This document shows, piece by piece, positions 296 to 62,893 of a DNA stretch of 64,000 bases. The stretch spans positions 19,980,346 to 20,044,345 of the forward strand of contig OY997653.1 in the NCBI GenBank assembly GCA_963921795.1, given 5' to 3'. Position 1 is the stretch's first letter. Every line of letters begins with the position of its first letter. The translations under genes were made by a program, and so were the position numbers. The notes under the pieces are model-generated. The model was not told the DNA's origin, searched no databases, and was given only the letters and a program-made list of their open reading frames with translations. The DNA is from Nannobrachium achirus (Eukaryota; Chordata; Actinopteri; Myctophiformes; Myctophidae).

Positions 296-597
296 GCGTC
301 CTAAACCCATTTAGGCCTAAAATTTGTGGATGCTTTAACTATTAAAAAATAGCAGATATACAAGCTCACAGCGCGGCACCGAGTGCCGCGCTGCAAGCTT
401 GTAGATCTGCTATTTTTGAAAAAGTCGTGAAAATGTGTGCAAATCTTTGAATATATGTAATTTCAAAGTGAACGTTTGTAACTAAAATTTTGCTTCTGGG
501 GGGTCCCTGGAAATAAATATTTTGAGATGGGGGGGTCCGTGGCCAAATACATGTCATTTTGGGGGTCCTTCACATGAAAAGGTTTGAGAACCACTAA
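296..597. mobile_element. Family B repeat with central palindrome
   Basis: Ends in GTTTGAGAACCACT and carries GGGGGTCC blocks. The palindrome at 343-417 has the loop region GCGCGGCACCGAGTGCCGCG. Lies just left of med23 exon 22. Confidence 0.8.
343..417. repeat. Core palindrome copy (family B)
   Basis: Inverted arms built on AAATAGCAGATATACAAGC with a GC-rich tip. Confidence 0.88.
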
Positions 598-816
598 CAT
601 AGTAGTCTCTCAAGAACAGACTAACTGAGCTCCAGTTAAGTGAAAAGGACATTTTCTTTGACGATGGCTGGCCAGATTGCCGACACAGAAACATAGGTTT
701 TTTTTTCCCAAAATCTTAGAAGGATTCAAAAAAGACACTTAAAGAAATTCTAATTTTCACGATTTTTCAAAAATGTGTCATAGTGTGTTCAGGCCTAAAA
801 TGGGTTATAAACCCAC

Positions 817-1059
817 CGTGGAACTTGTAGAGTCCTCCCAGGTGGTCCAGCAGGGTCTCCAGGGACTTGGAGACGGGCAGCAGCTCCAGGAAGCGGTGGA
901 TGACGATGTCGAAGACGGGCAGGAAGCGCAGGCACACGTTGCCAAAGTAGATGGGAAGGTACTGAGACTGCAGCTGCATGGGCGGGCTGACCTGGTCCGC
1001 CAGGCCCTCGAAGTACAGCTTCTCTGGAGGCCCTCGAAGTACAGCTTCTCTGGGTACTT
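817..1059 (-). CDS. med23: med23 coding exon 22, with a 26-bp internal duplication
   Basis: Encodes EKLYFEGLADQVSPPMQLQS, YLPIYFGNVCLRFLPVFD and LLDHLGGLYKFH plus one base, donor GTGGGT. The stretch encoding PEKLYFEG is repeated with a 26-bp period, so splicing at the expected acceptor (1060-1061) shifts the frame. An AG inside the second copy (exon start 1021) would restore it and omit only KYPE. Confidence 0.88.
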
Positions 1060-4000
1060 CTACTCTCACACACACATAGTCATAACATTATTATTATGAT
1101 TCATTATTATTATTTATTATAATTTTAAACCAACTGTTTTATGTACAAAACTGTTACTTCTCAGCTATTCAAGTAAAATAATGAATCATAAACATCAAAA
1201 GTAGCAGATCTGGTGGATCTGCTACTTTTGATGCTTCTGTGTGATCAAGTAGGGCATTCATTTATACACAAAGTTAGAATATGGAGATAAGAGGTTTCTG
1301 ACAGACAGCAACCATATATACTATACAACAACATTTCTAAAATCATATAGACATATAGACCGTTTTCCTGAGCACTCCCCTGCAGAGGGCACAGTCAGCC
1401 ATGGCTGCGGTGCAACTTGATACGCTGGACGAGGAATTACAAAGATGTTTGCCAGAAGTGGATACAAAATATCTACCTAAAGGACGATGTCGCCTACGTA
1501 ACAGGCGATGTTAGGAAATACATTCAAATGGAGGAAGTGACAAAACCAATCCACTGAACATAGCATAGAAGGCTGGTACCCAGGCTAACGGTGAATAGCA
1601 TGTATGTGTGTATGTGTGCGCGTTCCTTGTGGTAGGCCATGTGCTTGGTGTGCCAGACGCTTTGCAGCTGTGTGTGCGTGTACGCGTGTGTGTGTGTGTG
1701 TGTGTGTGTGCGTGCGTGTGTGTGTGTGTGTGTGTGTGTGTGTGTGTGTGTGTGTGTGTGTGCGTGTGCGTGCGTGCCTTGTGGTAGGCCATGTGCTTGT
1801 TGTGCCAGTCGCTCTGCAGCCAGTGCTCGGGAGCGTTCTCCTTGACAAAGTCGTTGACTCGGTTCCTGAAGTCGTTGGGCTTCAGCAGCAGCAGCTGGAT
1901 GATGAAGTAGCACACCTGAGCCTCGTTACCCTCATGGCTGCGCATGGCCTGAGAGAGGAGGAGACGCTTACAATTAAAAACGCTATCCACAACTTTCCAA
2001 CATCCCATTGTGCATTGCGCAGAGTGTGCAGGCAGCTTCCGGCGCCTCAGCCGAGAGTGATCTACAAGCTCAACGGTTGCATCTGTGACGCAACGTGAGC
2101 TTGTATGTCTGCTGTTAACTGGAAGTGTCCAGCAAATAATGCTACAGTAAATTCTCGCGGAAACAGGTGTATAACAATTCTGAGAATCCTAAAACGTTAC
2201 AGGACGACTTCATGACTTTTCAACCTATCTTCATATAATAGGGTCCTCACTAATGTTCATGATAAAATAGCACATTTTTTTTTTCTACTCTGTCCGTCTC
2301 TTAGGAGAGCTGTGGGAAGTTCAGAAACCCATCATCCAGTGACATCATTGTTGATTTCTTTCTAAACAATATTTTTGAAAAACATATACAGATTTTTATT
2401 ATCGCGAGAACAATGACTTCCGTTATAACATTGCAACTTTTCAGGAATGGAAAGCCTACAGTTTCCATTAGCTTGAATCCCCCCATCGATGATGTCACTG
2501 GTAGGCGGGTTTCTGAACTGCCCACAGCCCTCCTCTGAGACACAGACAGAGTAGAGAAAAAATGGTGCTATTTTATCATGAACATTAATGAGGATGAATT
2601 ATATGAAGATAGGTTGAAAAGTGGTGAATTTGTCCTTTAAGTATAGTACTAAGTGCGTGTGTGTGTGTGTGTGTGTGTGTGTGCGTGCGTGCGTGCGTGC
2701 GTGCGTGTGCTCACCAGACACAGGATGAGTCTGTCCAGGGTGACTATGTTGTACTTCCACACCATGTCGTTGAGGATCTCGATGCACTTGTTGAGCTGCT
2801 GGCCGCCGGCCGACGTGCTGAACTCGTACACCAGGAAGTCAGCGAACGTGCGCACATGGGCCACCAGCGCACGAGCCCCGATGCGCTCCAACACCCTGAC
2901 GGGGACGAGAGGGACGAGGCACGGATTAAACCAGTGGCTCTCAAACTTGTTCATTTCAAGGACCCGCAAATTGACACTTTAGCCCGTGGACCCCATTTGA
3001 AAAGATATGCCAGGGACCCCCATAAGAGAAGAATTATAAGGCTCTATTCTCAACATTTTAACTTCAGACCTGTGGTTTCTGTAGGCTTGGGGCACGTGGT
3101 TTGGGGCAAACCCCAGAAATGAAAACTCTTCCTGAAATCCCAGACTCTCTTCCCAAAACGAAGTGTGTGATAGAGGCTGGCAACGCCAGGCAACATCTGT
3201 CTGTGACTGTCTGAACATCTACAAGCTCACAATGCGTGGCGTTGTGACACATTGTGAGCTTGTAGATCGGCTGTTTTCAAATGCGGGAAAGTATATGGCC
3301 GAAATGTATTTGTAATTCTAATCAAAATCTACAAAGTAACTAGTAACTAAAATGAGCCAGTCTTTTGCACGGCTCCCAGAGATCCAGCTCACTTCAAAGA
3401 GCCATACATCCCATCTCTAACCTGAATCCTATCTGGTTGATGTGGTCGGTCTCCAGCAGCATCTTCCACAGCAGACAGAGGAAGAGCGGCGGCGAGCCCT
3501 GCATGGAGAAGTGCGTGATGATGTCGTTCTCGTTGGACATGGACTTCCACTTCCTGTACTCCTCCTCAACGTTCTTCTTCAGGTTGAAGCGGGACTCCTG
3601 GGGCACGTTGTTCTGCTTGAAGAACGCCTGGCAGAGAGAGAGAGAGAGAGAGAGAGAGAGAGAGAGAGAGAGAGAGAGAGAGAGAGAGAGAAGGGAATGA
3701 CATACTGTAGTCAGGGTTCCCACACATTTTTACCAATTCATTTCCAAAACTTTTCCAAAACTTTTCCAGAATATTTAACCCAATTTCCAGGACTATATAA
3801 CAATAATTCAGCTAAATAATGCTTACTCCTATGTGCAATGCCCAAAGACAGGTAGTGTATGCCAGTGGTTCTCAACCTTTTCAGGCTGTGACCCCAGAAA
3901 TAATCATATTATAACTGGGGACCCCGGCACTCTGACGAGCACTAAGAGTTGAGGAATTTTGTATAACACAGTTCTATTGTGAAAATAGCAGATCTACATG

Positions 4001-60985: not shown

Positions 60986-61965
60986 AGGCCTGTCACAATT
61001 ATTACATAATCGCCTAATTGCAATTATTTTACATAATCGCCTAATTGCAATTATTTTATATAATCGCCTAATTGCAATTATTTTACATAATAACGGTTGT
61101 TTTTGTCATAATCGTCATAATCGTTTCCATGTTGAAAAATGATCATATATTTTCAAACATGTTAAAAAATAGTGGACATCCACAAGCTCACAACGCGGCT
61201 CACAATACTGTCAGAGCTGGTTATGCGGACTTCACGTCTGCTATGCGATTACAATACCGTTAGCCTGGGATCGCTTCCGATTTCGGGGTTTGATCCGGTC
61301 GGGAGCGGAAACAGCTCAAGGGCATAATATTAGGGCCTACCTAATAAACCCCTTGATGCAGCGCAGTTTTGCTTTTGGAAAATTTGTTTGGAATATGCAT
61401 CTTTTTTCTCCAACTCGTAACGACTGGCAAAACTATACTAGGCTTTTCTAGCATTTAAATAGGGATTGGGGAAACAAACGGGGGGGACCAAAACAAAGTG
61501 ACACCGCTTCAAAGTGACACCAAAACAAAGTGACACCTGTTTCCAGTTTAGGCCACGTCTAGACCGGATCAAACGGCCCGTTGTAAACAAATGCCAGGCT
61601 ATCCTCCGTGGTGGAAAGACTGGTGACAAATACCTTTTAATTTCAAGGACCACACTAACTCTGAGAATGTACATTCTCAGAGTTACAGACCTGTAAGGGT
61701 CCATTTTGAAACCCCCTATACTAGGAATCGTTTAAGGGAAACGTTAAGGATTCTGAGTTTTAATTAAGAGGGAGTCGTTACAATCCTGAAGATCTCCAAC
61801 CGTATTCTAAACAAGCCGACAGGCGAGTTCCGTAGGCAGGTCTGAAGTGCCGATAATCACGATGAGGCACAACCCTCAAGTTGTGATTATATAACAGTAC
61901 CCTTAAAAAAACACGTCAACTTCATTTCATTGTAATTAAGATATTTGATGGAAATGTGTACATTC

Positions 61966-62290
61966 TTAAAGGGCCAGTTCACCTCTGGGGCAACCAGATC
62001 TTATTTTATTGTTGTTTGGGACACGATCAACACAATCCTGAGTTATGTTTTGTGTTCAATCTGTGTTTTGAGATATTTTAGTATTTCAGCATGAATGATG
62101 ATGCATTTTGCATCATAATGAGTCATCATGCTGCATCATATGATGCAAAATGCATCATCATTCATGCTGAAATACTAAAATATCTCAAAACACAGATTGA
62201 ACACAAAAAAGAACGCAGGATTGTGTTGATCGTGTCCCAAACAACAATACAATAAGATCTGGTTGCCCCAGAGGTGAACTGCTCCTTTAA
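61966..62290. mobile_element. Foldback element with CATCATATGATG centre
   Basis: Almost the whole length is one inverted repeat, starting TTAAAGGGCCAGTTCACCTC. A half relative lies at 32551-32784. Confidence 0.85.
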
Positions 62291-62893
62291 TGCCAGATTT
62301 CACTAGAATGTCCCTAAACTTCACATGAAAACTGCTAGTGCAGTCATCGCCTACAGAAACAATAAAAGCGACTAAAGACGGCCATTTTGCAACCGGTACA
62401 GCTGATTTATTTGTTTGATGAGACCCGTTCCATAGTGCTCATTATCATCACGGGTAGATAGCTATTTCAACCAATCAGATTTCTTCGTCAGAACTACCTG
62501 CTGTATAATCTGCAAATGCCTTCTGAATCCGTATAGTTCTCTAGCTTTTTGCGTGCCAAGGAGTGCAGCAGCATATGTGTTGAATTGTTTACAATGGAAG
62601 CGTCTACTTACTCAGAGCTGAAATATTTTCAACTCGGCCACTCGGAAGCAACGCGTCAATCACACTGTGATGCGTTTTTAGCTTGTAGACTGGCCATTTT
62701 CAGCACATACCGGTAGCTAAGTATGAAATACTGCATAACTCCAACCTTAATCAATCATGTTTAATCCTAACTATAACCCCAACCTAAATCTGTTCCTAAT
62801 AGCCTAATAATAAGCTCAACTCTAAATATGTATTTTTCTTTTTACTATAAAACAACCTTTTCTCTTGTGAGAAGGGAAATGATCCTCACTCAC

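What the first reader, a model, noticed from the sequence alone, without database searches (positions are those of the whole stretch)
343..62705. One palindromic core sits inside at least seven otherwise different repeat families
Roughly 40 whole or half copies of TAGCMGATCTACAAGCWCAC with its inverse occur across 62 kb, mostly as 60-80 nt hairpins. Clear whole copies: 343, 3215, 10077, 11760, 12477, 13958, 20076, 22161, 22907, 24039, 30707, 33158, 37738, 46350, 49260, 50059, 52324, 54366, 60836. Halves: about 6447, 8172, 36729, 38255, 38527, 43800, 47140, 48209, 56115, 59345, 61165, 62680. Host families A-G have unrelated ends, so shared descent of the hosts does not explain a shared centre. 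It could be a self-spreading hairpin, a required internal transposition signal, or a hot spot for gene conversion between elements.
Basis: partly seen in the sequence, partly recalled or inferred. Interest (0 to 1): 0.82.

Follow-up and report, generated by a model that had tools for sequence, protein, structure and literature searches.

The report
Shared hairpin in unrelated DNA transposons
In what looks like a fish genome, one 70-base DNA hairpin sits inside several kinds of short jumping elements whose ends and insertion sites differ; in one case it was clearly carried in by another element, and its shape has been kept, which is unusual but has a close precedent in corals.

Summary
The core 20-mer has 41 matches in the window (chance 0.01) and 664,542 in the 1.66-Gb genome (control 5); 39,223 whole hairpins have both 15-base arms exact (control 0). 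Hosts are MITE-like elements: C, D and E with hAT-like 8-bp target duplications, P with TTAA, and B with neither (tentatively TA). They do not align as one family, but D, E and an H copy, perhaps also C, share P-like flank beyond the palindrome. In E a whole P element, hairpin at its centre, lies inside the host: this junction occurs 29,254 times, the joined empty site twice, both at 3 mismatches. So one host got the hairpin by nested insertion and multiplied with it.

Self-spreading is not supported (no flanking duplication in general), nor is exchange between hosts (hairpin type follows host; arms agree in 45 of 45 sites with both assigned). Between families stem changes are paired and the hairpin is more conserved than flanks, while arms of single copies decay independently: source elements kept it. 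A cis-acting function is possible, unproven. Closest precedent: coral CMITEs.

The parts
347..415 (.). hairpin in host type Q (probable TTAA element with a hairpin near each end)
22827..23093 (+). host B copy, TIR TATCGTCGTTGTCGGG; hairpin 22913-22981
46266..46483 (-). host B copy, hairpin centre deleted, 46356-46398
52259..52509 (+). host B copy; hairpin 52329-52397
37621..37985 (+). host C copy (hAT-like TIR CAGTGGTTCTCAACC); hairpin 37742-37804
20365..20706 (-). host C copy by its ends; half-hairpins 20543-20577 and 20604-20628
3863..4086 (+). host C copy; hairpin 3983-4032
10923..11252 (+). host C copy with an internally deleted hairpin near 11024
54..265 (-). host C copy with hairpin remnant 136-175
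21926..22333 (+). host D copy (TIR TAGGGATGGGACGATA); hairpin 22172-22213
30471..30762 (+). host D copy; hairpin 30713-30762, right part not matched
11491..11837 (+). host E copy (hAT-like TIR CAGGGGTCTTCAACG), left part to the hairpin
11690..12040 (+). TTAA element P (rearranged) inside host E; hairpin 11762-11830
20067..20181 (+). 115-bp TTAA element P; hairpin 20078-20139
56121..56199 (+). right half of a P element ending in GGTTCAAGTGGTTAA
50063..50131 (.). hairpin in host F
60838..60906 (.). hairpin in host F
13960..14028 (.). hairpin in host G
10079..10128 (.). hairpin in host H
3217..3276 (.). hairpin in host H (right flank shared)
12486..12533 (.). hairpin in host I, itself an inverted repeat 12401-12603
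49264..49351 (.). hairpin in host type Q (arms Q_in2/Q_out)
24041..24110 (.). whole hairpin, host not identified
33161..33220 (.). whole hairpin, host not identified

Best explanation
The palindrome is an old hairpin module of about 69-75 bp at the centre of non-autonomous DNA transposons (MITEs). Its best-documented carrier is P, a diverse TTAA-target MITE lineage (piggyBac- or Kolobok-like by recall) with ends TTAA-CCACTTGAACC. Shown: P sits whole inside one hAT-like MITE (E), and that composite multiplied to about 29,000 junctions. Inferred: older P insertions with eroded ends gave the hairpin to D and H and perhaps C; how B, F, G, M and Q got it is not known. Each family then carried it vertically. 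Shown: between families the stem changes in matched pairs and the hairpin differs less than the flanks, whereas single copies decay arm by arm. Inferred: the source elements that made new copies had an intact hairpin, either because it helps propagation (for instance as an extruded or single-strand hairpin during replication or excision) or because palindromes are re-made perfect when a new source element forms.
For: P termini and hairpins go together: in the window and 25 random loci, 13 of 15 termini with at most 1 substitution have a hairpin arm within 140 bases inward, 15 of 19 at up to 2 and 20 of 32 at up to 3, against 123 of 2000 random 140-mers. Seven inverted P pairs, all with TTAA both sides and a hairpin; five lie in E-type flanks, two (L033:9106-9270, window 20067-20181) elsewhere. 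E junction 29,254 matches at up to 3 mismatches against 2 for the joined empty site. Flank likeness in 378 pairs: D-P z 6.7 and 3.6; an H copy to P z 4.0; C2-P z 4.7. Hairpin type follows host in 98 half-hairpins: T at position 17 in 22 of 24 C, 0 of 74 in B, D, E and Q; centre type D 9 of 10, Q 9 of 9, B/C/E 45 of 45 scorable. 13 of 33 stem pairs with two-sided change in 14 chosen copies, shuffles 5.0 +- 1.5, 0 of 500. A mismatch at pair 8/62 in 10 of 14 speaks for one origin. D against E: hairpin 65 of 69 letters alike, flanks 64 of 120, p 6.7e-10; C against C2: 67 of 69 and 84 of 104, p 0.0018, gap columns 0 and 54. In copies, 65 pairs differ on one arm and 6 on both, 3.4 expected.
Against: Only E shows the insertion directly. 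B, F, G, M and Q flanks show no convincing likeness to P. One of eight P left ends of the E type (L007:1404) has other flanks, so P of that type also moved outside E. 90 of 99 host arms that reach the spot hold a hairpin arm, but any founder with a hairpin would give that. Hairpin-less hAT-like elements with perfect duplications exist, and 8 of 17 repeat communities with at least 4 copies fall below 40% of copies with a hairpin. No transposase was tied to P. Arm and family sequences were partly chosen by eye.
Confidence: 0.5

Rival explanations
1. Neutral passenger: the hairpin entered a few founders by nested insertion or as repair filler and was merely copied along; matched stem changes come from template switching that perfects palindromes when a new source element arises. 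No function.
For: E is a clear passenger case; hairpin-less elements with similar ends exist; L026:3783 is a bare hairpin between 21-bp direct repeats, as filler insertion could leave.
Against: The hairpin differs less than the flanks between sister families, and the four largest repeat communities in a 302-kb census carry it.
Confidence: 0.3
2. Cis-acting hairpin needed or strongly helpful for mobility across transposase families.
For: Present in hosts with 8-bp and with TTAA targets and in B; paired changes between families; slow divergence; 9 of 17 repeat communities with at least 4 copies have it in at least 40% of copies.
Against: Not strictly required: three hairpin-less hAT-like elements with perfect 8-bp duplications. 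No direct test. Different transposases would all have to profit.
Confidence: 0.13
3. Self-spreading hairpin that jumps on its own.
For: High number; one bare copy with a 21-bp flanking repeat; 53 of 148 sites have no assigned arm.
Against: Longest flanking direct repeat in 75 full hairpins: mean 4.6, the 21-bp case included, against 4.46 in mixed pairs; hairpin type and arms go with the host where assigned.
Confidence: 0.04
4. Gene-conversion or recombination hot spot that homogenises hairpins between elements.
For: L027:678-1130 looks like a B-like arm joined to an E/P right arm at a half hairpin.
Against: No cross-host arm pairs in 45 of 45 sites with both arms assigned; host-specific hairpin letters kept.
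Confidence: 0.03

Closest known systems
Coral CMITEs (PMC2872659; abstract, part 1 of 2 of Results, whole Discussion and a word search seen)
   Same: Families with different TIRs share a conserved internal region of about 75 bp that is more conserved than the ends; TTAA targets; tandem arrays; one new element created by a CMITE insertion.
   Different: All CMITEs are TTAA/piggyBac-like, estimated at about 1600 copies; the words palindrome and hairpin do not occur in that text. Here the module is a palindrome, has about 660,000 half-site matches, and lies in hosts with 8-bp as well as TTAA targets.
MER6 carrying a V-SINE domain (PMC6887750; abstract and outline only)
   Same: A conserved module spread by riding in a MITE of another class.
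   Different: There the module comes from a SINE; here it is a hairpin, in one case shown to come inside another MITE.
Angel and other palindromic fish MITEs; Tol2 internal inverted repeats (recalled, nothing read)
   Same: Fish elements with long hairpins; a hairpin-based amplification model was proposed for Angel.
   Different: No sequence comparison could be made; Angel is recalled as one family.
SINE central domains such as CORE and V (recalled, beyond the MER6 abstract)
   Same: One conserved centre in families with different ends.
   Different: Retroposons; here the carriers have inverted ends and target duplications of DNA transposons.

Membership tests
MITE (non-autonomous DNA transposon) | terminal inverted repeats | tested here: met
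   inverted end pairs found for B (16 rows), C (11), D (6), E (5), P (7); none for the H ends tried. The ends were search patterns, with mismatches allowed
MITE (non-autonomous DNA transposon) | target-site duplication | tested here: met
   8 bp for D (mean match 0.71, cross-copy control 0.31), E (0.95, 0.52) and C-type ends (0.70, 0.38); TTAA for P by search; for B no 8-bp duplication (0.41, 0.29) and TA on both sides in 5 of 16 rows, so B stays tentative
MITE (non-autonomous DNA transposon) | short, high copy number, no transposase | tested here: met
   lengths 115-478 bp apart from one 627-bp row with mixed ends; 99,296 B and 41,638 C half-hairpin matches; absence of a transposase judged from length only
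CMITE-like group | internal region of about 75 bp more conserved than the rest across families | tested here: met
   for two family pairs; for 14 copies
CMITE-like group | all members with TTAA target and CC[C/T]T piggyBac-type ends | tested here: not met
   P has TTAA but ends CCAC; C, D and E have 8-bp duplications
CMITE-like group | sequence homology to the coral internal region | not tested
   coral sequence not held
piggyBac-derived | ends shared with an autonomous piggyBac element in the same genome | tested here: inconclusive
   116 scored transposase matches of 952 candidates; in the 4 loci fetched no P or Q end and no TTAA inverted pair was found
known structured RNA | match to an Rfam family | tested here: not met
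   0 matches in the window at gathering score

The most novel reading that the evidence does not exclude
The hairpin is a transferable cis-acting amplification module: a structure that raises the copy gain of MITEs whatever transposase moves them, so that families which capture it become the dominant repeats of the genome and selection on source elements keeps its stem paired.
Probability: 0.2. Interest if true: 0.85.

Novelty: new variant of a known kind. Interest (0 to 1): 0.55.

Why it matters
Why a few MITE families reach huge copy numbers is a long-standing question. A hairpin shared by elements with different target sites, more conserved than their flanks and re-paired between families, gives a concrete cis element to test. 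It also shows modular assembly of transposons: one element nests in another, and the composite multiplies under the outer element's ends.

Tried and rejected
Rejected: chance, one ancestral host family, hairpin as an independent mobile unit, exchange between families, ongoing arm-to-arm correction at single loci, known RNA family. Led nowhere: full-text search for two 15-mers, 0 papers; a TTAA scan around 99 hairpins found pairs for 6, against 3 of 400 control places; piggyBac loci. Literature searches (listings only: 5 of 5 shown; 10 of 10; 8 of 8; 15 of 53; 12 of 30; 10 of 10; 8 of 16) showed the coral paper and, by title and start of abstract, no fish case; papers outside the held library were not searched. 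Clustering was too coarse and was replaced. A P-arm profile put a hairpin beside 11 of its 14 best and 11 of all 37 matches, but 12 of those 14 were its own seeds, so one search replaced it. One search used end-free alignment with uninformative shuffles and was replaced. A count for host Q did not complete.
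Full report
WHAT IS THERE. The window is C16:19980346-20044345 of a 1.66-Gb genome in 564 contigs. It looks like a teleost from contig sizes, G+C near 43% and repeats; this is inference, no name is given. The core 20-mer has 41 matches at up to 3 mismatches in the window against 0.01 expected. Genome-wide at up to 2 mismatches there are 332,366 forward and 332,176 reverse matches against 1 and 4 for the reversed control, and 39,223 whole hairpins with both 15-base arms exact against 0. 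The window and 20 random 10-kb stretches hold 127 matches at up to 3 mismatches, 41 and 86 (about 12 kb of the random part is N). Spacing is exactly 43 in 19 of 31 facing pairs, and the seven stems folded are very stable.

THE HOSTS. Around the hairpin lie different MITE-like families. Ends and target sites were examined on copies with both ends. D (TAGGGATGGGACGATA) has 8-bp duplications, for example GTTCTGAC on both sides of L029:4607. E (CAGGGGTCTTCAACG) has perfect 8-bp duplications in three hairpin-bearing copies (ATCTACAC, AACTAAAG, CCTTACAT). C (CAGTGGTTCTCAACC) has one in L016:6646 (GGGTAAAC); L014:6481, with similar ends, a hairpin and other arms, has TTATACAC. P has TTAA and ends CCACTTGAACC. 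B (TATCGTCGTTGTCGGG) has no 8-bp duplication and TA on both sides in 5 of 16 rows, so its kind is tentative. Q is probably a TTAA element with a hairpin near both ends, read from the alignments and not tested. F, G, H, I and M were seen in one to seven copies each; the H ends tried gave no pair. C and E ends resemble each other.

SHARED FLANKS. 234 half-hairpin flanks were compared, then 28 hand-picked arm sequences in 378 pairs with 60 shuffles each. P variants are linked to D (z 6.7 and 3.6), to an H copy (L023:8548, z 4.0) and, more weakly, to C (a C2 arm, z 4.7). B is linked to its relative N (z 4.3); for F the best is 3.5 (to B), and G, M and Q stay below 3. So the hosts are neither one family nor wholly unrelated.

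HOW ONE HOST GOT IT. In E the hairpin lies inside a P element. Of eight P left ends of the E type, seven have the same host flank (CAGATAT or CAGACAT) and one, L007:1404, another. The left junction has 14,794 and 14,460 matches at up to 3 mismatches; the joined empty site has 2, both at 3 mismatches. P therefore entered the E founder, or before it, and the composite multiplied. P also occurs in other flanks: L033:9106-9270 and window 20067-20181. P ends and hairpins go together: 13 of 15 ends with at most one substitution have a hairpin arm within 140 bases, against 123 of 2000 random stretches; at up to 3 substitutions, 20 of 32.

NOT MOBILE ON ITS OWN, NOT EXCHANGED. Longest direct repeats beside 75 full hairpins average 4.6 against 4.46 in mixed pairs. 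One exception, L026:3783, is a bare hairpin between 21-bp repeats. In 148 sites, 45 had both arms assigned, all within one host (C and C2 counted as one), 50 had one and 53 none. In 98 assigned half-hairpins the diagnostic letters follow the host; 117 of 215 halves could not be assigned. These sets include the eight loci fetched with the core and the four piggyBac loci. Against this, L027:678-1130 looks like a B arm joined to an E/P arm at a half hairpin, one local rearrangement.

KEPT IN SHAPE AT THE SOURCE. Across 14 chosen copies of 8 host types, 13 of 33 pairs show two-sided change (shuffle mean 5.0, 0 of 500 as high); slid controls reach at most 6. Pair 8/62 is mismatched in 10 of 14, a shared quirk that argues for one origin. 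Of 54 plus-strand places printed, the 49 of standard length were examined (five left out; at least three lie within 3 kb and may be local duplicates): in the inner nine pairs deviations lie on one arm in 65 and on both in 6, with 3.4 expected, mostly C-to-T and G-to-A. So dead copies are not corrected; pairing was kept or re-made in the elements that seeded families. Between sisters D and E the hairpin is 65 of 69 alike and the flanks 64 of 120; between C and C2, 67 of 69 and 84 of 104, with 54 flank gap columns, end gaps included. The D-E flanks run beyond clear homology, which inflates that contrast; the C-C2 contrast is smaller and firmer.

FUNCTION. 90 of 99 host arms that reach the spot hold a hairpin arm (a copy can count by both arms; eight core-fetched loci included), and some of the other 9 show remnants. 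In a 302-kb census without those eight loci, 9 of 17 repeat communities with at least 4 copies carry it in at least 40% of copies, the four largest among them; these 9 hold 130 of 187 copies, 82 of them with a hairpin (added up). Yet hAT-like elements without it have perfect duplications, so it is not strictly required. Two readings remain: a helpful cis module, or a passenger whose palindrome is perfected when new sources form. Four piggyBac-gene loci held 9, 8, 3 and 3 core matches at up to 4 mismatches; the one read through, L034, has them in B and P-like elements in a tandem duplication, so they say nothing for a hairpin inside an autonomous element.

COMPARISON. The nearest published case found is the coral CMITE group (PMC2872659: abstract, part 1 of Results, Discussion, word search): a 75-bp internal region conserved between families with different ends, unexplained, all TTAA. 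The present case differs by the palindrome, the scale and the spread over target-site kinds. A module riding in a MITE is known from MER6 (PMC6887750, abstract). Angel and SINE domains are recalled.

Noticed in passing
L026:3725-3870: A bare 54-bp hairpin without the usual AAATAGC flanks lies between direct repeats of 21 bp (TTGAAACCACGCCCACTCGTT), as if inserted as repair filler.
   Followed up: partly
L034:1-1560: A tandem duplication of 671-bp period holding a B element and a P-like hairpin stands upstream of a piggyBac-like gene with five equal-scoring matches in the genome.
   Followed up: partly
L022:5880-6130: Three half-hairpins in a tandem array of roughly 90 bp; coral CMITEs also form tandem arrays.
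   Followed up: no
window 18233-19188: Two identical 477-bp tandem copies rich in CGGGTCGGGTCG with ATGAATGCCCCACCC.
   Followed up: no
L027:678-1130: Mosaic of a B-like arm and an E/P right arm joined at a half hairpin.
   Followed up: partly
genome C2:71.34-71.84 Mb: A dense cluster of piggyBac-like transposase matches, most with open frames.
   Followed up: no
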